DNA of 64,000 bases from Spiroplasma chinense (GTDB taxonomy: Bacteria > Bacillota_I > Bacilli_A > Mycoplasmatales > Mycoplasmataceae). The stretch lies in assembly GCF_008086545.1 (NCBI RefSeq), contig NZ_CP043026.1, positions 62,001 to 126,000 of the forward strand, in the 5' to 3' direction. The notes beneath the pieces were generated by a model. The model was not told where the DNA came from, did not search any database, and saw only the letters and a list, made by a program, of their open reading frames with translations. Every line of letters starts with the position of its first letter. Positions within the stretch are counted from its first letter, which is position 1. Shown here one piece after another: positions 10,533 through 29,864 of the stretch. Position numbers and translations under genes: made by a program.

Positions 10533-11063
10533 ATGGAACAATCTTTTGATATATATACATTTAGACTTACTTTTACTAATGGAACAGTAATTCCTGAGGT
10601 AAAAATTATTACTTCAAGAAGTGACCCTGAATTAAATAATTGTTATGTTAAAATATACCTAGAAAACGAGAAGGGTAAGAAGGGGTTAGATATGTTAAAC
10701 AAGGATTTTAGAGATGTATTAAAACCAACTAGTCAGTATTTTTTTGATGTAAATTATATTGAGTCACCGTTGGTAATAGAGTTGAGAAGACAAATAAAGG
10801 AACTAACTGATGGTTGAGCAGCTGATAGAGAAGCTTGAAAAATTGAAAAAGCAGAACTGCTTGAAATTATTTCAGTTCAACAAAAAACTATTGAAACTCA
10901 ACAAAAAACTATTGAAACTCAACAAAAAACAATTGAAACTCAACAAGTTACTATAAATGAACTTCAATTAGAAGTAACATCTTTAAAAAGTGAAGTAAGC
11001 TCACTTAAAAATGAAATTAGTAGATTAAAAAACTTACTCGATGCAAATGGCATCAAATATTAA
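10533..11063 (+). CDS. Coiled-coil protein of unknown function (paralog of 14267)
   Basis: 176-aa protein. ATG 10533 follows GAAAGGAG. The N-terminal 90 residues form a compact domain (FRLTFTNGTVIPEVKI, SRSDPEL, GKKGLDMLNKDFRDVL, ESPLVIELRRQIKELTDG) with no transmembrane segment or signal peptide. After two UGA-encoded Trp (WAADREAWKIEKAELLEII) comes a long coiled coil with three QQKTIET heptads and further SLKSEV/SLKNEI heptads to the C-terminus. A paralog at 14267 shares the whole architecture and is almost identical over the Trp-containing linker. The family is not recognised. A terminator follows, so the gene looks monocistronic. Confidence 0.75.
10878..10940 (+). repeat. Three tandem 21-base repeats coding for coiled-coil heptads
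   Basis: A 21-base unit beginning CAACAAAAAACTATTGAAAC is repeated three times (10878-10898, 10899-10919, 10920-10940), with one base change in the third copy. Each unit encodes exactly one heptad (QQKTIET), so copy-number change would keep both frame and heptad phase. Confidence 0.85.
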
Positions 11064-12201: not shown

Positions 12202-12213
12202 TAATATTTTTTT

Positions 12214-12243
12214 AAACACACTCTAGAGAGAGTGTGTTTTTTA
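12214..12243 (+). terminator. Terminator of rpiB-upp
   Basis: An 11-bp hairpin (12214-12224 with 12229-12239, loop AGAG) followed by T residues. Confidence 0.85.
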
Positions 12244-12477
12244 ATTTTGTAACTAAAATTGTTATTTAAAAGTCAGCAATATATAAACTAGTAATATCTA
12301 AGGAATGATATATAGTTAAATATTATAACCAATAAAATTTTACGATTTAAAGCATTTATTTAATTCTTAAAGGTTATTTTTAAAAAAATATGATTATTAA
12401 CTTATAAAAATAATGAAATTATGGGTTAGTGTTTTTTTAATTAACCGATTTTTTCAAAATGAAAGGGAGTTTTATAA

Positions 12478-13401
12478 ATGAGAAAATTACTAATTATACT
12501 ATCAGCTATCAGTTTAACCACAACATTACCTAGCAACCTTCTTGTGTCAGCCAAAAAAGTCGATATAATTGGAAAAAACATTGAATCCGAAAAAATTGAA
12601 TTGGAGGATGTGCGTACTTCTATTAATAATACATTTCAACAATTATTATCCGAAGAAAAGAGCCCAAAAATCTCGAAAAGTGCTACGGTAGGTGCAGAAA
12701 CAGAAAAATCTAGTTTTTCTCTTTCTGAAGAGGAATCAGAAATTGTGTTGAGTAAAGCAAATGAATTATTAGAGAAATTAACGAACAGTAATTATGAGTT
12801 AGAAGATTATATGGATTTTGTTTTAGAAGAAAGTTCAGAGTTTAATGAAGAATTCAAAAAGATGCAGTTAATAAATAATGATTTTATTTTACCAAGTGAA
12901 ATTTCTAGTGTTGCAAAAAATGAAGATGAAAAATCAAATAGAGCATTAGATTTAGGGGGAACGTTGGGTAACGAAAATCAGATGATTGACAAAAATAAGA
13001 ATTTAGTCTCTAGTCTTAAAAATGTACGTAGGGCGATTAATACGGGAGGTGCTGCTGCTGCAATACTGGCAGCTGCCTTATATGCTTCAGCTCCATGGCT
13101 CTTTTATTCCACTTTAAAAGCTGCAATTGCTTGTACAACGGCTGCTCTAATTTCTTCTGTAGCTGCAGCGAGTATTACTGTAATGTTGGCTATTTATTAT
13201 AAAGATTCTAATGATCATGAAAAGTTTGGTAATGTTTTTAATGCTGCCATTATTGTTGGATTTAAGCTAGCCAGAGCAGCTCTTTGAGCTTTTGAAGTTT
13301 ATGTGCTTGGAGTTATACCCACCAAATGAGCAGCCCCTTTTTTAGCGGCGGTTGTAGTGACTGTGACTACCACATGAGATTGAACAAGAAATAATTATTA
13401 A
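12478..13401 (+). CDS. Exported protein with acidic middle and Ala-rich hydrophobic C-terminal region
   Basis: 307 aa. ATG 12478 follows GAAAGGGAG. Residues 1-25 are a signal peptide (MRKLLIILSAISL..., ending near LLVSA) without a lipobox Cys. Residues 30-180 are hydrophilic and Glu/Ser-rich. From about 187 the protein becomes strongly hydrophobic and Ala/Gly-rich (NTGGAAAAILAAAL, AAIACTTAALISS, AAASITVMLAIYY, then a second stretch ending AAVVVTVTTTWDWTRNNY), enough for several helices. No known family is recognised. The plan of leader, acidic propeptide and small hydrophobic helical core is reminiscent of pore-forming bacteriocin precursors, but that is inference. UGA encodes Trp in the C-terminal part. 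It is followed 17 bases later by a membrane protein gene, probably in one operon. Confidence 0.7.
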
Positions 13402-13418
13402 TCTATGAGGAGTTTTTT

Positions 13419-14162
13419 ATGGATTTTGAATTAGGAACATATTTATATGTTGTAGCAGGTTTTACCTCGAATTTATTTTTTTTCTCATATCTTCATCACC
13501 TTAATGAAGATTATAAAAAGAAAAAATTGTCCACTACTATATTTATTTTTGATGATATATTAGATCCAAAAACTTTTCCCTACCTATTACCAATAGAACG
13601 TAAAACCCATTTTATTGATCATTATATAAAAATATCAATAATTATAATGACATATATACCGATTGTATTATTTGCACCAAGAGATTCAAAATGATATTTA
13701 TTTTTTTTGCTATTAATTTCATTAATGCAAGTAATTTTTCTAGTCGAAGCTATAATCTATATACTTTACATAAAAAAACGTGTTTCAAAGTATAAATTTT
13801 TCTCAAAAGAAGAATCTATTATTAATTTTAAGAAATCAATTCTTGAAATGGAAAAACACCATGAATGTATGACTTTTATTTTTACAAAGGAAAAGAAAAA
13901 TAAAAAAGCTATAAGTAGAATTAAAAAGGCTCAATTAAAAATGGGAAAAGAACTTTTATTATTAGGAAAAGAAAATCAAGATTATAAGGTTTTAAAAATA
14001 TTTTTAAAATATATCAAGAAAATAAGTTGAGGAACTTTATTATTTAAGGATACTAAAGGATTAGAGATTATTTGTAAAGATAACACATACCCATACAGTG
14101 AATTGCCAAGAATTGCTATTGAAAACTTTTTGTTAGTCTTAGAAGAAGCTGTTAAAACTTAA
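13419..14162 (+). CDS. Membrane protein with cytoplasmic C-terminal domain, unknown
   Basis: 247 aa. ATG 13419 follows TGAGGAG. It has one hydrophobic segment near residues 5-26 (YLYVVAGFTSNLFFFSYL), a second around 67-87 (IKISIIIMTYIPIVLF) and a third around 93-117 (FFLLLISLMQVIFLVEAIIYILYI), followed by a Lys-rich soluble domain of about 130 residues. UGA Trp codons at about 13692 and 14028 split it in the standard code, but the frame is intact. It sits directly behind the exported Ala-rich protein and shares its terminator, so a role as partner or immunity protein is possible. No homology was recognised. Confidence 0.65.
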
Positions 14163-14169
14163 ATTATAT

Positions 14170-14209
14170 AAAATGTACAATTTTTTAAAAAAAGTTGTAC
14201 ATTTTTTTT
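14170..14209 (+). terminator. Terminator of the 12478-14162 pair, overlapping the next promoter
   Basis: AAAATGTACAA (14170-14180) pairs with TTGTACATTTT (14195-14205), followed by a T run. The right arm is the same TTGTACATTTTT block that begins the conserved upstream element of the next gene. Confidence 0.7.
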
Positions 14210-14226
14210 GATTTCATGACGATAGT
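14195..14226 (+). promoter_or_regulatory. Conserved upstream element of the coiled-coil gene (copy 2)
   Basis: TTGTAC (14195-14200), a 20-base spacer, then GATAGT (14221-14226) inside CATGACGATAGT. Both blocks and the spacing match copy 1 at 10469-10500. Confidence 0.45.
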
Positions 14227-14266: not shown

Positions 14267-14734
14267 ATGGAAGAATATGATTTATATATTTTTTCTGTAA
14301 GTTTTGCAAATGGAAAGATTATACCAAGAATCAAAATTTTAATACCTAGAAGTGACCCGAAGTTAAGTGAGGAATATGATAAAATATATTTGCAAAACAC
14401 AAAAGGAAAGAAAGGTTTAGATTTGATGAATAGGGATATGAAAAATGTATTAAGCCAAGAAAAGCAATATTTCCTAGATCTAGATTATGCAGAGTCACCA
14501 TTAGTTATGGAATTAAGAAGACAAATAAAGGAATTGACAGATGGTTGAGCAGCTGATAGAGAAGCTTGAAAAATTGAAAAGGCAGAACTTCTAGAAATTA
14601 TTTCATTACAAAACCAAAAAATTGAGATGCAACAAGTTTTAATTGATGAACTTAAAGATGAAGTTGTTGATCTTAAAGCAAAAATAGTCGGTTTAGAAAC
14701 TGAGTTGAAATGATACAAAGATAAATACGATTAG
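14267..14734 (+). CDS. Coiled-coil protein of unknown function (paralog of 10533)
   Basis: 155 aa. ATG 14267 is preferred over upstream in-frame starts because GAAAGGAGG lies just before it. The N-terminal domain matches the 10533 product (FSVSFANGKIIPRIKI, RSDPKL, GKKGLDLMNRDMKNVL). The segment RRQIKELTDGWAADREAW and the following KIEKAELLEIIS are identical between them, and the DNA there is almost identical, pointing to recent duplication or gene conversion. The coiled coil is shorter and lacks the QQKTIET repeats. No transmembrane segment or signal peptide. Function unknown. Confidence 0.75.
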
Positions 14735-22116: not shown

Positions 22117-22842
22117 ATGAGAAAGAGAAGAGAAGTTGTGGGATCCAACTATATTTTGTTGGGATGAACCGCACTTATTTGAGATTTATTAGTTGGTTTT
22201 ATTGGGGTTGCTTTAATCACACGAAATTGAAATGATAGCTTAGGTAAAACCGAAATAGTATTTTTAGTATTAATTGTTGCAGGATTTGTAAATGCTGTAA
22301 CAGAGAAAATGCAAATTTATACATATATGAATTTGCATTTTGAGGACAAGAATTATAAGTATTGAATTGTAATGTTTTCGTTAGTTCCAATTATTGGAAT
22401 ATTTATTTGGTTTTGTATAATGTTAGAATATTCTAAAACATATGAAAATAGTAAAGTATATTTAGAAGCAAAAAACAGTTCAGTTCCATTAACTATATTG
22501 TTTTTAGTTTTTATAAATGTTTTGTTAATTTCATGTATTTGTATTACAACATTTACTGTAGCTTTAAATGATTATGATAAAAACATTATTTTTATAGCTA
22601 TTATCTTTGGTATTGTAATTGGATGAATGTACTTATTAACTGTTGTTGTAAGTTACTTTATTTTAAAGGTTACAAAACCTAGAGAATCTTATGATAACGA
22701 AAAAATCAAGGTTTTTAAAATACTTGCCTATATACCGTTGGTTTCATTTGTGTCTTCAATGGTGTTTATAAAAAAATACTATAACAATCAATATGTTGAA
22801 AACTTGGTAATACTAAAAGAGCTAAGTAAAAAAGTTGTTTAG
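22117..22842 (+). CDS. Polytopic membrane protein, unknown
   Basis: 241 aa. ATG 22117 follows CAAAGGGGAA. Six probable transmembrane helices, including WTALIWDLLVGFIGVALI, IVFLVLIVAGFVNAV, WIVMFSLVPIIGIFIWF, LTILFLVFINVLLISC, IFIAIIFGIVIGWMYLL and a shorter one near 215-230. Ends in a basic LKELSKKVV tail. UGA Trp codons interrupt the standard-code reading several times near the N-terminus. No family recognised. Monocistronic between two terminators. Confidence 0.7.
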
Positions 22843-24943: not shown

Positions 24944-25561
24944 ATGAAAAATACATTTTTAAAGTTAGCATCCGTTTTTTTAGTGACAGGTTCAATGGTG
25001 CCTACCATTAATGAAATAAATAATAATTTAAAAGTAGATAAAAATATAGCTAGATATGGAACAACCAGTATTTATATTTCCAAATCTCACCCATATTATG
25101 TGGGTTACTGAGGAAAAGGTGTTGTTAGAAGGAATACTGACCATGAGGCCTTAAATTTAAATATCAATTTAAAAGGAGGACTTACTAATGCTCAACTATA
25201 TAGTTCGTTAATTACATTTGTTTTTGCATCATGGGGTTGAAACTTAAGTAGCGAAGCAAAGGGTCTGGTTAGTCCTGCGACTCACACTGTTACTGTAAGT
25301 TATGCGGATTGATATTTTGGTACTAGTAAATACTCAATAGGTACAATGTTGAGATTTGACTTGCCCAGACTTATTCAAAAAGAAACTAATTATATTTCAA
25401 TGATTCAGCAAAATTATTTCAAGTTGGATACAAAAGAAAATATTTTACATGCAACAATTTCATCCATTGTCGAGACATACGTAAAGTCTTATAATTCTGG
25501 AAATAACAGAGGAACAGCTTATTATGGGCTGTCCAAAATCGATTTTAAATACATCATTTAG
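24944..25561 (+). CDS. Exported protein heading the first ABC unit (paralog of 34286)
   Basis: 205 aa. ATG 24944 follows GAAGGGAG. Residues 1-22 form a signal peptide (MKNTFLKLASVFLVTGSMV) with no lipobox Cys, so it is probably released or held non-covalently. The mature part is beta-rich with many Tyr/Ser/Gly. It shares with the 34286 product a conserved core: SIG-x-M-L-x-x-DLP-x-LI-x-KETNYISMIQ, then TYVKSYNSGNN and a C-terminal aromatic/Ile end. Both copies stand immediately before a large ABC permease. Function unknown; substrate, modulator or product of the transporter are all possible. Confidence 0.7.
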
Positions 25562-25578
25562 CTATAAGGGGTAGAGTA

Positions 25579-27348
25579 ATGAGAAAAATTAATATTCCGA
25601 AAAATGTTTTTAAAATGGCAAAAATTAACTTAAAGATGGTTACACTAAGCAAAATAAATTTTGCTTTCTTAGGTGTAATCCTTTTTGTAAATTTTGCCTT
25701 TTCAGGCATCTATATATTTTTAAATTTTAACAGAACTAATAACGCTGATTATTCATATGTATTTGCAATAGAAAATGCATGTATATTATTTTTATTTTCT
25801 TTATTTTCAATCTATTGTACATCTAGGATTTATTTTTCAACAGAAAATAAAAGTTACCAGCTTTTGGAAAGACAATATGGTTTAAAAGGTTGAGTGTCAT
25901 TTTTTGTAAGATACTTTCTAATTTTCGTCTATTTGTTGACAATAGTTTTCATATACTTTTTGTTGCAAACAATGTTAACTCAAATTAATGGGGTGAAAAT
26001 ATCTTTTCCTTTAATTAGTGCGCCTAAATTAAATCTAATTTTATACAGTATATTAGTTTTGAATGTTTTTATACTTTTAACATTAATTGTTAAAAGCTTG
26101 GCGGGTTTATTTTTAACTACATTATATATATTGTCTTTAATATTTGGACCTATTGTAACAGCTGCTTTAAAAGATGATTCACACCCCCAAAACCAAAGGG
26201 TAGTAGAAGAACTTACTTTTAAAATAAATATTGGTAAACAATTTGTTAAGTATTCAGAAAAAGATAAACTAAATCTTTATGATGGAAGTTATGAGCAACT
26301 TTTTATGTGATATGAAGATGAATATTACTTTAAAGACTTTAATCTAATGTCAAATTTAAGTAGTTTTTATCCTTATCAAGGATCAAATGTTGTGGATGCA
26401 ATTATTTATAATGATGAACCTTTAAATTTCTACTTAGCTTTTTGGATGGGACAAACTTTAAATAGAAATGAAAATAATAAATATTTACTTGGATTTAGTG
26501 ATAAGTTATTACAAGCTCATTTAGACTTAAAAACTTCTATCGAATCTATAGAAAGAAAAACAAATGTCACATGATCTCAACTACCTTATTATGAATGAGT
26601 GGAAGATGAAAAATATGTTCCTATTAATTTTAAAAAAACTTTAAAACAATTAAGAAAAACAACCTTTGGTAAAAACTATAAAAATCTATTACAGTTTATT
26701 GAACTTAATTTAGATGATTTATTAAATTATAGAGACCCTTTTAGTGATAGATATCCTTTATTTTTTTCAACAAGATTTATTGGAGGAAGTGTAATTGATA
26801 CTCCTAAGAAAAATGAATTATGAGAAAAATATATTAATAATACAAATGAAGAAGTTAATGATTTTTATAAAGCATATCCAGAGTTTCTTGTAATTTCTCA
26901 AGTATTAAATATTGGTTTAATGAATTCTTATGCCATTTATACAGGAGCTCTTAACTTTTTTGAAAACAATTCATTACAATTTTTTTCTTTAGACTATTAT
27001 GATAAAACCCTTTCAAAAATTAAAAGTAGAAGTTATGCTAATTACTTTAACTACTCTTCTTATTTAAACACTTCTTATTACAATGGCATTTATTCAAATG
27101 CATATTTAAATCAAACTTATCAATTCTGATGATTAGAACCAAAAAATTATTATGTATTAAATGATGACTTATTAATTAGTAACTGGAAAAATAACTCCTT
27201 ATCTACAAAGTCATCAGTTCTTAAAAATGATTTGAAATTAAAAAATACTCAGATTGTAATATTTGCTTACGCTTTATTTATTGCTCAAGCTAGTCTAACT
27301 TTGTTGATTAGTTTTGTGATTTACAACAGAAGAAATATTGAAATATAA
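25579..27348 (+). CDS. ABC transporter permease with large extracellular domain (unit 1, A-type)
   Basis: 589 aa. ATG 25579 follows AGGGGTAGAG, 17 bases after the exported protein. About five N-terminal transmembrane helices (near residues 27-50, 64-86, 108-132, 152-175, 176-198), then roughly 350 hydrophilic residues, then one C-terminal helix (about 557-583) and a basic end. Motifs shared by all five permeases of the array are LLERQYGLKG in the loop before TM3, GQTLNRN, YKNLLQFIE, EEVNDFYKAYPEFLVISQ and YANYFNYSSYL. Multiple UGA Trp codons break the standard-code reading. The general architecture fits ABC export permeases with an extracytoplasmic domain; no named family recognised. Confidence 0.75.
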
Positions 27349-27370
27349 AAAATCAAAAGGAGAAATAAAA

Positions 27371-28102
27371 ATGATTAAAATTGAAAATTTATCTAAAAAA
27401 TATAAAGCATTTAGTTTATCCAATGTAAGTTTTGATTTTTTAAAAGAAGATTTAATTGCTTTTGTTGGAGATAATGGTTCAGGAAAGACCACAACCATAA
27501 AGTTAATTTTTAACTTAATAAAAAAAGATAATGGTGAAGTTTACTATAACAATGATAAATTACATACTAATTCTAATTTATCAAAAATAGCATTTTTTCC
27601 AGATTCAAATAACATACCTTTAGAACTTACAATCATCGAGTATATGGAATATATAGCAGCCATCACTGATGTTGAAAAAGAAGAATTCATTATAAGATCT
27701 GAGAATATTTTTAAAATGTTAAACTTAAAAGAAATTAAAAAGAAAAAACTAAAACAATTATCTGGAGGAATGAAAAAAAGAGCTGTGATGGCTGGGATTT
27801 TAATTTCAAAACCTGAATTTATAATTTTTGATGAACCTACAGCAAATCTTGATGTTGAGGCAAAGATTGAGTTTATTGAACTTATAAAAAAATTACATGA
27901 ACGAGGAGTTGGCATTTTAATTACCAGTCATATTATTGATGAACTTCAATCAATTGCTAACAAACTTATAATAATTAAAAGTGGAAGTATTGTTTATAAT
28001 GAAGCTTTTGATAACTCAAAATCAAGTATAAAAGAAATATATTTGAAATTTAAAGATAAAAGAGAATCAAATCTTAAAGAGTTGGATAAAATTTATGAAT
28101 AG
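27371..28102 (+). CDS. ABC transporter ATP-binding protein (unit 1)
   Basis: 243 aa. Start ATG 27371 (MIKIENL) chosen for AAAAGGAGAAA; upstream in-frame codons lack a site. Walker A GDNGSGKTT at residues 33-41, signature LSGGMKKR near 130, Walker B FIIFDEPTANLD, switch His in LITSHII. Nearly a twin of the 31739 product, with identical runs such as FFPDSNNIPLEL and VEAKIEFIELIKKLHE. The next permease starts inside its last codons with an 8-base overlap (ATGAATAG). Confidence 0.93.
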   Translation: MIKIENLSKKYKAFSLSNVSFDFLKEDLIAFVGDNGSGKTTTIKLIFNLIKKDNGEVYYNNDKLHTNSNLSKIAFFPDSNNIPLELTIIEYMEYIAAITDVEKEEFIIRSENIFKMLNLKEIKKKKLKQLSGGMKKRAVMAGILISKPEFIIFDEPTANLDVEAKIEFIELIKKLHERGVGILITSHIIDELQSIANKLIIIKSGSIVYNEAFDNSKSSIKEIYLKFKDKRESNLKELDKIYE

Positions 28103-29864
28103 TTTAAGGATGAATGTATTATTTTCTTGATTGAATTTCAAATTTATTTTTAAAAGTATCATTAACTTTGTTTTTCTAATCTCAATATCAGTTTTATTTT
28201 TCACGTTTTTGGGTCTTTATAGTTCTTATGATTTAAAAAGTGATTTTGAAATAAAGTATTACAAACTAATTTCAATTGAAAATACTTTGACTGCAATTTT
28301 GTTTGGTTTCTTTTCAATTATTTTAGTAGCAAAAGTTTATGTAACACCAGAAGCAAAAAACAGATATCTTATGGAAAAGCAATACGGTATAAAAACTATT
28401 AAATCTTTTGGCTTAAGATATTTGACCATAATTATGTATTTGTATTTAACTATTTTTGCATATTTTATTTTACAAATATTTACAATCCCTTTTATTGTTG
28501 CAACCAATATTTCAATAAAGATGATAGTAGTTCCAAAACTTAATTTACTTATTTTCTCTCTTTTAACTTCAAGTTTATCACTTATCTTTTTAACAATTTT
28601 TAACTCCTTTTATGGAATAATTGCTGCTATCACTTTAATTTCCTTTATGAGTTTAGGATCTATTTTTTCAGCCTTAGTTAAAGCTGACTGAAAAAATAAA
28701 AATGATATCATGTTAGGAGAAATAACTTATAACATAAAATTAGGTCAAGAATTTTATAAGGCGGCTGTTAAAGATGGTTTTAATTTTTATAGTGAGGATT
28801 ATCATCTTTTTAAATTAAATGAACAAGATGAAAATTACTATTATAAATATTTTGAAGGTTCTGAAAATCTATCATCATTTTATAAAAATAAAAATATTGG
28901 CAATATTAAAGCTGATTTTTCAAATTTCTATGCAACTTTTTTAAAAGGACAAAATCTAAACAGAGATATTTTAGAAAACAACGGTGAAGTCAAATTTATT
29001 TTAGGATTTGATTTACAATATTTAACTTTTTTCAACGAATTAAAAGAGTTTTTACAATCTAAAGACTTAATGTCAAATTTAAAATGACAAGATACACCAA
29101 GTTACAATGATATTTTAGAGATAAAACCTATTAAATTTGATTTAACTAACTTTGTATTGGAAATCAAAAAAAGTGAAATGATGAGTCGCTATAAAAATTT
29201 AATTTTATTTATTGAAAAAAATTGAAATTCACTTTTAAATAAAAATTATAATAACATTTTTAAATATAAAGTTTTTGAAGAAATAAATGTTTTACCAGAA
29301 GGTGACAACATTGAAGAAAAACTTTGAGAGAGTAGTGTTTTATTTCAAAACAAAGAAGTAAATGATTTTTACAAGAAGAACCCTGAATTCTTATTAATAA
29401 GTCAAATACTAAACAAAGGTTTTGTAAATTCATTTAATATCAATTTTTTAAATCATGTAATTTATACAGATAGGGTTAGAAATTATGTAATCACTTTAGA
29501 TGAGTATGATAAATACTTAAAAAACAATAAGACAAGTCAATTTATAAATATTTTCAATCTTAATGGTTATCTTAACTCTCAATACTTTAATAATTTTGAA
29601 AAAGCCATTTTTTTAAATCAAGTACAAGGGTTATGGGATATAAAACAAACTAAGTACTTTGATATTAGAAAACAAATAAAGTCAAATGATTATTGAAGTC
29701 AAGAACAAGATTGAGTAGATACCACAAGATCAATTTTTAGTGACTTTGGAAAACCTAAAAATTCCAATATTCTTATTTACATCTATGGTTTTTATCTTTT
29801 TGTTTTTACAATAGCTTCATTATTATCTTTCTATATTTTTTTAAAAAAAAGAGAAGTTTGGTAA
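28095..29864 (+). CDS. ABC transporter permease with large extracellular domain (unit 1, B-type)
   Basis: 589 aa, exactly the length of the permeases at 25579 and 32463. Start ATG 28095 overlaps the ATPase stop by 8 bases, as at the equivalent 32463 junction. Same topology: helices near 20-43, 60-82, 107-135, 150-170, 172-195, a domain of about 350 residues, and a C-terminal helix with end FLKKREVW. Shared motifs: LMEKQYGIKTIKSFGLRYL, GQNLNRD, YKNLILFIEKNW, EVNDFYKKNPEFLLISQ, QFINIFNLNGYLNSQY. Closest to the 32463 product. Several UGA Trp codons. No stand-alone terminator is obvious before the next unit. Confidence 0.75.

What the first reader, a model, noticed from the sequence alone, without database searches (positions are those of the whole stretch)
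12478..14162. Exported Ala-rich helical protein paired with a membrane protein: possible bacteriocin-like/immunity pair
The first protein has a signal peptide, a long acidic middle and a very hydrophobic Ala/Gly-rich C-terminal region (NTGGAAAAILAAAL onward) with a Trp-rich end. The second, 17 bases downstream and sharing a terminator, is a membrane protein with a Lys-rich cytoplasmic domain. Precursor plus small membrane protein is a common layout for secreted membrane-active peptides and their protection. No homology was recognised, so this is a hypothesis.
Basis: inference. Interest (0 to 1): 0.55.

Follow-up and report, generated by a model that had tools for sequence, protein, structure and literature searches.

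The report
Mollicute secreted toxin–immunity-like gene pair
A wall-less bacterium related to Spiroplasma carries a fast-evolving two-gene cassette that looks like an exported membrane-attacking protein plus the membrane protein that protects its maker, a kind of weapon hardly described in this group, but its activity has never been tested.

Summary
Under genetic code 4, window 12478-13401 (A, 307 aa) and 13419-14162 (B, 247 aa) are real, 17 bases apart, and followed by one hairpin terminator. A has a Cys-free signal peptide, a variable helical middle and a 137-aa Ala/Gly/Trp-rich hydrophobic domain; B has membrane segments and a basic C-terminal half. No known family explains either.

Relatives favour a toxin-immunity-like pair. 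A and B adjoin at 14 loci of 11 genomes, broken copies included, among them an 11-kb S. taiwanense plasmid and S. platyhelix. Neither gene follows upp in any of 19 congeners. B outlives a broken A at 6 loci, against 1 reverse case. Both evolve faster than housekeeping genes. In two other families of the order the A domain is often followed by other multi-TM proteins, including relatives of NCBIfam MAG0920, which occurs in tandem arrays.

Against: 10 genomes carry the A domain and no B, structure models were unusable, and no activity is shown. I favour an exported membrane-active antibacterial protein with a membrane immunity protein (0.55): a new family of a known kind; the paper searches named below listed no such system.

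The parts
12214..12239 (+). terminator hairpin of upp; upstream border, so A-B are probably transcribed apart from upp
   Evidence: 12205-12250 folds at -14.1 kcal/mol, z -3.6
12478..13401 (+). gene A: 307-aa protein with signal peptide and hydrophobic C-terminal domain (proposed toxin)
   Evidence: relatives
12478..12552 (+). signal-peptide region of A (about residues 1-25, no Cys)
   Evidence: NF038029 22 bits on residues 1-24, below cut-off 24
12988..13398 (+). conserved 137-aa Ala/Gly/Trp-rich hydrophobic domain of A (profile A9)
13402..13418 (+). 17-base gap with ribosome-binding site GAGGAG (13407-13412)
   Evidence: sequence; no terminator-like site listed here
13419..14162 (+). gene B: 247-aa membrane protein with basic C-terminal half (proposed immunity protein)
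   Evidence: relatives
14170..14205 (+). terminator hairpin shared by A and B
   Evidence: z -6.0 for 14163-14212
14267..14734 (+). coiled-coil-like gene that, like A-B, is not seen between upp and the atp operon of the congeners; paralogue of 10533-11063

Best explanation
A and B form a cassette for antagonism between bacteria. A is exported by the Sec route (signal peptide seen in the sequence; export inferred). Its C-terminal hydrophobic helical domain is inferred to insert into the membrane of related wall-less bacteria and disrupt it, much as membrane-depolarising bacteriocins do. B sits in the producer's membrane (hydrophobic segments seen; topology inferred) and is inferred to block its cognate A. 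The cassette occurs at different sites and on a plasmid, A and B diverge quickly, and B is kept as an orphan when A decays.
For: (1) Linkage: of 14 A genes that I place in the B group, 12 (broken copies included) have B as the next gene, including S. platyhelix with a 1-bp gap and the 11,138-bp plasmid of S. taiwanense CT-1. (2) Site: downstream of upp, A or B is found in 0 of 19 congeners; 16 have upp directly before the atp genes, 2 have other genes between, and in G030 the atp genes are not within 20 kb. (3) Asymmetric decay: A broken/B intact at 6 loci, A intact/B broken at 1, in a genome that keeps another intact B. The 7 family genomes with an intact B-group A all lie among the 18 of 60 with B (p 8e-5, phylogeny ignored). 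(4) Rates between G034 and G042 at dS 0.19-0.29: dN/dS 0.34 for A (one copy broken), 0.61 for B, 0.07-0.15 for upp, atpB, atpA. A and B distances correlate (r 0.63, p 0.007, 8 pairs, two with a fragment of A; shared descent alone could do this). (5) Other partners: in families f2/f3, 10 of 16 A-domain genes are followed by a 180-330-aa protein with at least 2 TM that is not a B relative, against 23 of 346 background genes of the same loci (p 5e-8; rows not all independent). (6) One such partner (L161) matches NCBIfam MAG0920 just below its cut-off (40.6 bits, cut-off 43). That family occurs in tandem: three genes in L187 after an apparently broken A gene (156, 42.8 and 33.1 bits) and four in L188 with no A domain in that 14-kb stretch (three over the cut-off, one at 39.7).
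Against: No activity data. Ten family genomes have an A-domain gene and no B: the A' clade (G018, G022, G023, G024, G027, G029, G041) and genus g9 (G047-G049); G043 has a broken A domain and no B. Of 17 A'/g9/L090 genes, none has a 180-330-aa multi-TM protein as next gene, no more than the background rate of 23 in 346. One intact A has a broken adjacent B (L104) and two have no adjacent B (L106, L173). The 6:1 asymmetry alone is not significant (two-sided p 0.125). Eight family genomes have B and no A domain at E 0.001, which loss of A explains but does not prove. AlphaFold models were unusable (pLDDT 34.1 and 38.7). No signal peptidase I was detected, so release from the cell is uncertain. 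No Pfam, NCBIfam, PHROG or PADLOC toxin family is hit.
Confidence: 0.55

Rival explanations
1. A is a secreted or surface membrane-active effector aimed at the animal or arthropod host; B is its membrane partner (chaperone, exporter part or self-protection).
For: All 33 genomes with the A domain in the phylum sample are of the window's order, whose known members live with hosts (recalled). A' proteins occur in genomes without B. One of 19 A3 members gave a weak hit to an inclusion-membrane protein family (NF052432, E 2e-4).
Against: B kept after loss of A, tandem MAG0920-like arrays and exchanged partners fit immunity better than an effector accessory.
Confidence: 0.2
2. A and B are subunits of a lineage-specific membrane complex (adhesion, envelope or secretion) with no toxicity.
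For: Linkage and A/B distance correlation; hydrophobic A; some A' genes keep the same neighbour, e.g. the same large ATPase-like membrane protein in G023 and G024.
Against: B is kept without A in many loci; only 3 of 20 genomes of the genus have an intact adjacent pair (G000, G034, G045); dN/dS is high.
Confidence: 0.15
3. The pair is a maintenance (addiction) or superinfection-exclusion cassette of plasmids or other mobile DNA.
For: Plasmid copy in S. taiwanense; absence from the homologous site in congeners.
Against: A has a signal peptide; of the 14 A-B loci only G045's lies on a small contig. No phage record matched, no relative in viral contigs, no PHROG hit.
Confidence: 0.07
4. A is the Sec-exported precursor of a short bacteriocin peptide cut from its C-terminus.
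For: Signal peptide, hydrophobic Trp-containing C-terminus.
Against: The conserved domain is 137 aa and part of the middle region aligns too; the adjacent genes are upp and a coiled-coil-like gene, not a peptidase or exporter; signal peptidase I was not detected.
Confidence: 0.05

Closest known systems
Pore-forming colicins and their membrane immunity proteins (recalled)
   Same: Hydrophobic helical membrane-active domain; small multi-TM immunity protein encoded next to the toxin; plasmid carriage.
   Different: No colicin family among the Pfam hits of A and no convincing PDB relative; signal peptide instead of lysis release; no receptor or translocation domain recognised; target would be wall-less cells.
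Secreted bacteriocin/immunity pairs of Gram-positive bacteria, e.g. circular and class II bacteriocins (recalled)
   Same: Two-gene layout, membrane immunity protein, membrane-active hydrophobic segment.
   Different: A is ~300 aa with a long helical N-terminal part; no exporter or processing gene beside it.
Polymorphic toxin/immunity systems with membrane-targeting effectors (recalled)
   Same: A shared domain with different immunity-like partners; orphan partner genes and arrays; fast evolution.
   Different: Here the shared part is the hydrophobic domain itself; no known delivery domain was hit in A.
NCBIfam NF045996 MAG0920 family (function unknown)
   Same: Three hydrophobic segments and a soluble C-terminal part; a relative directly follows an A-domain gene (L161); arrays.
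   Different: No significant sequence relation to B (L161 partner against B profile: probability 11%); only 6 of 148 genomes of the order, 0 of 14 controls.

Membership tests
Spiroplasma A-B family (defined here) | A and B each have relatives elsewhere, side by side in one orientation | tested here: met
   single-sequence searches: A 1.3e-19 and B 4.7e-12/2.4e-11 in G034, where relatives adjoin; 12 of 14 B-group loci adjacent. Profile scores of the window are by construction
Bacteriocin/immunity pair (works like) | linked membrane gene retained when the toxin gene is lost | tested here: inconclusive
   A broken/B intact 6, reverse 1, p 0.125 alone; many B with no A points the same way
Bacteriocin/immunity pair (works like) | killing or growth inhibition of related bacteria, cognate protection | not testable with these tools
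   needs expression experiments
Bacteriocin/immunity pair (works like) | every carrier of the toxin domain has an immunity partner | tested here: not met
   0 of 17 A'/g9/L090 genes have a 180-330-aa multi-TM next gene; 10 genomes with the A domain lack B
Pore-forming colicin | match to a colicin pore-forming profile | tested here: not met
   no such hit for window A (E up to 1) or for 19 A3 members (E up to 0.01)
Small processed class II bacteriocin | short mature peptide, leader peptidase or exporter nearby | tested here: not met
   137-aa conserved domain; no such adjacent gene; signal peptidase I not found
Known integral membrane structural protein | homologues of known structural function | tested here: not met
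   no informative Pfam, NCBIfam or PDB hit
Anti-phage defence system | match to PADLOC models | tested here: inconclusive
   none for window A or B; one 20-bit LeoBC hit to S. platyhelix A (6.9e-5), probably helical bias
Lipoprotein (LP_plasma) | Cys after the signal peptide | tested here: not met
   no Cys in the first 35 residues of window A; 22 bits, cut-off 24

The most novel reading that the evidence does not exclude
An order-wide toxin/immunity system of wall-less bacteria: an exported hydrophobic domain found here only in the window's order, in some f2 genomes fused to an extra conserved C-terminal segment, paired with exchangeable membrane immunity proteins (B, MAG0920-like and others), some of them kept in arrays. 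It would be a general mechanism of antagonism between mollicutes; the partnerless A' clade would be host-directed or domesticated versions.
Probability: 0.4. Interest if true: 0.75.

Novelty: new variant of a known kind. Interest (0 to 1): 0.55.

Why it matters
Weapons between bacteria are scarcely described for Mollicutes: full-text searches for Spiroplasma, mollicutes or mycoplasma with bacteriocin, interbacterial, toxin or immunity protein listed no title on such a system (two of the four lists were cut), and the passages found in three Spiroplasma toxin papers mention none. If right, it gives a function to two uncharacterised gene families and to NCBIfam MAG0920, explains part of the fast-changing 'hypothetical' content of Spiroplasma genomes and plasmids, and offers a small cassette for testing how minimal cells compete inside their hosts.

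Tried and rejected
Structure: window A and B were folded with one relative each (only window and L124 sequences were allowed) and gave pLDDT 34.1 and 38.7; no fold search was run because such models are meaningless. Solved structures: profile A3 best E 0.017 (ribonuclease HII, then helical bundles; taken as helical bias), A2 and A9 none. Family libraries: stray weak hits only, plus the signal-peptide model and MAG0920 for a partner. Viral contigs: no relative; phage records none; plasmids one record with the G034 protein, none with window A. Profile A1 hits limited to about columns 1-140 without the hydrophobic domain were dropped as signal peptides of other exported proteins. The first Mantel test (r 0.91) was driven by one close pair and replaced by r 0.63 without it. 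No Rfam or tRNA match in the window. MAG0920 is not mentioned in the paper library.

Limits: broken/intact calls rest on single assemblies and may include sequencing errors. The B-group label follows adjacency and the tree, is partly circular, and is uncertain for L106 (unresolved). The L121 B has an open frame but no ATG near its start, and L123 holds a broken B. In the tree 42 domain rows of at least 75 aa were kept; one search used 47 A-domain rows at E 1e-4. The window A branch is very long (1.82). dN/dS rests on single pairs. TM counts are a hydropathy threshold.

The retained-B membership row was lowered to inconclusive.

Full report
What is there. The window is contig 1, 62001-126000, of a 1,370,182-bp genome. 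Table 11 breaks both genes; table 4 gives A 12478-13401 (307 aa) and B 13419-14162 (247 aa). They lie between the upp terminator (12214-12239) and a strong hairpin after B (14170-14205; z -6.0). A has a signal peptide without Cys, a helical and in this copy acidic middle, and a 137-aa hydrophobic domain; B has 2 hydrophobic segments by threshold (3-4 in relatives) and a basic C-terminal half. No Pfam, NCBIfam, PHROG, PADLOC or PDB family explains either.

Relatives. Counts include the window's own genome. With single sequences, A matched 9 of 60 and B 11 of 60 genomes of the family at E 0.01. With profiles at E 0.001, the A domain (A9) is in 21 of 60 and B (A2) in 18 of 60: 10 genomes have both, 11 only the A domain (one, G043, broken), 8 only B. 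In the phylum sample the A domain is in 33 of 392 genomes, all of the same order, and B in 19 of 392, one of them (G382) weak and partial outside the family. Named carriers: the S. taiwanense CT-1 plasmid NC_021832.1, where both genes are annotated 'hypothetical protein' (STAIW_RS05460 and RS05465), and S. platyhelix PALS-1.

The pair behaves as a unit. In 12 of 14 B-group loci B is the next gene, from a 23-bp overlap to a 196-bp distance (the latter after a broken A). Downstream of upp, A or B is absent in 19 of 19 congeners: 16 have upp directly before the atp genes (49-358 bp), G044 and G036 carry other genes there, and in G030 the atp genes are not within 20 kb. Elsewhere the pair sits at other sites, for example after rpoC in G058. 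A coiled-coil-like gene next to B is also missing from those junctions; its only other copy in the genome lies upstream of rpiB-upp (62% identity over 126 aa).

Loss is one-sided. Both intact: window, two loci of G034 (L098, L099), the G045 plasmid (L097), G013 (L102), S. platyhelix (L124). A broken, B intact: L101, L103, L105 (N-terminus out of frame), L108 (internal deletion), L111 (35-residue remnant), L113 (cut after about column 98). A intact, B broken: L104, in the genome that holds the intact B of L103. Both broken: L100. A intact without adjacent B: L106 (intact B 20 kb away) and L173 (intact B elsewhere in G057). B open without detectable A: L107, L109, L110, L112, L114-L117, L118 (two), L119 (two), L121 (no ATG near its start), L122; broken B: L123. 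The 6:1 count alone gives p 0.125. That 7 family genomes with an intact B-group A all lie among the 18 of 60 with B gives p 8e-5, ignoring phylogeny and with labels set after seeing the data.

Rates. Between G034 and G042, at dS 0.19-0.29, dN/dS is 0.10 (upp), 0.15 (atpB), 0.07 (atpA), 0.34 (A, the G042 copy broken) and 0.61 (B). A and B distances correlate over 8 pairs (r 0.63, p 0.007), as shared descent alone could also produce.

Other families. In f2/f3 the A domain sits in proteins of 168-448 aa; for 10 of 16 the next gene is a 180-330-aa protein with at least 2 TM, against 23 of 346 background genes (p 5e-8; L159/L160 are near copies and L164 counts twice). The other six: L158 and L160 (same kind of partner, 1 TM by threshold), L120 (464 aa, 7 TM), L165 (101 aa, 2 TM), L162 and L187. 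Of 21 partner candidates none resembles B in profile comparison (best probability 15%), and among themselves only a few are related. The L161 partner resembles NF045996 MAG0920 (40.6 bits, cut-off 43). That family lies in 6 of 148 genomes of the order and in 0 of 14 controls. In L187 three tandem members (156, 42.8, 33.1 bits) follow an A-domain gene that appears broken; L188 has four tandem members (three over the cut-off, one at 39.7 bits) and no A domain in the 14 kb fetched; L190-L192 hold partial copies; L189 has one member without an A domain. Several f2 A proteins end in a conserved extra segment of unknown role.

What does not fit. The A' clade (13 rows, support 92/92) and the g9 clade (3 rows) have the A domain but no B as neighbour. 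Of 17 A'/g9/L090 genes none has a 180-330-aa multi-TM next gene (L090 has a 149-aa, 3-TM one; in two g9 loci a 2-TM protein is the second gene on). Some A' genes keep conserved neighbours, and two A' pairs have dN/dS 0.21 and 0.40, so fast change is not confined to B-paired genes. They may be host-directed or domesticated. Signal peptidase I was not detected in the genome, so A may stay anchored. Structure models failed.

Literature. Spiroplasma + bacteriocin: 60 papers, 25 listed; mollicutes + bacteriocin + immunity protein: 3; Spiroplasma + toxin + immunity protein: 10; mycoplasma + bacteriocin + interbacterial: 30, 12 listed; no listed title concerns such a system. I saw passages only of PMC12453411, PMC12422007, PMC10232968 and PMC5726471; the last says that nine antisense RNAs of S. 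taiwanense correspond to hypothetical proteins on its plasmid, not which ones in the passage seen. Comparisons with colicins, class II bacteriocins and polymorphic toxins are recalled.

Verdict. The pair is real, sits at changing sites, evolves fast and has an immunity-like partner. The favoured mechanism, an exported membrane-active protein aimed at related wall-less cells with B protecting the producer, is inferred; export, insertion, toxicity and protection are all untested.

Noticed in passing
10533-11063 and 14267-14734: Two coiled-coil-like paralogues, the only two copies found in the genome (62% identity over 126 aa), flank the rpiB-upp-A-B block.
   Followed up: partly
24944-29864: A 205-aa protein with a signal-peptide-like start followed by two 589-aa membrane proteins and an ABC-type ATPase between them (names by recall); looks like an exported-product and transporter operon.
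   Followed up: no
22117-22842: 241-aa membrane protein with a weak hit to NF045937 MSC_0624 (23 bits, cut-off 70).
   Followed up: no
L088 4025-6620, L091 4044-6086, L169 2644-4749, L171 3490-5768: Small proteins with a similar signal-like start (mostly MGTLLSLLGSIGI) and a Gly-rich hydrophobic C-terminal segment cluster around A' genes in genus g8; the one tested had no Pfam family and only a 13-bit NCBIfam hit.
   Followed up: partly
L188 4588-8988, L187 4171-6577: Tandem MAG0920-family membrane genes (four and three copies) in relatives of family f2, like immunity arrays.
   Followed up: partly
L158 3570-4916, L161 4450-5247, L166 3883-5154, L187 6585-6812: f2 A-domain proteins carry a conserved C-terminal segment (VVNETxxDKPY..GGVGG..HFKN in most) without a Pfam hit in the three tested.
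   Followed up: partly
L094 5349-8255, L096 4090-6807: Genus g9: A-domain gene, lipoprotein-like gene and a 323-326-aa protein with 2 TM in the same order in two species.
   Followed up: no
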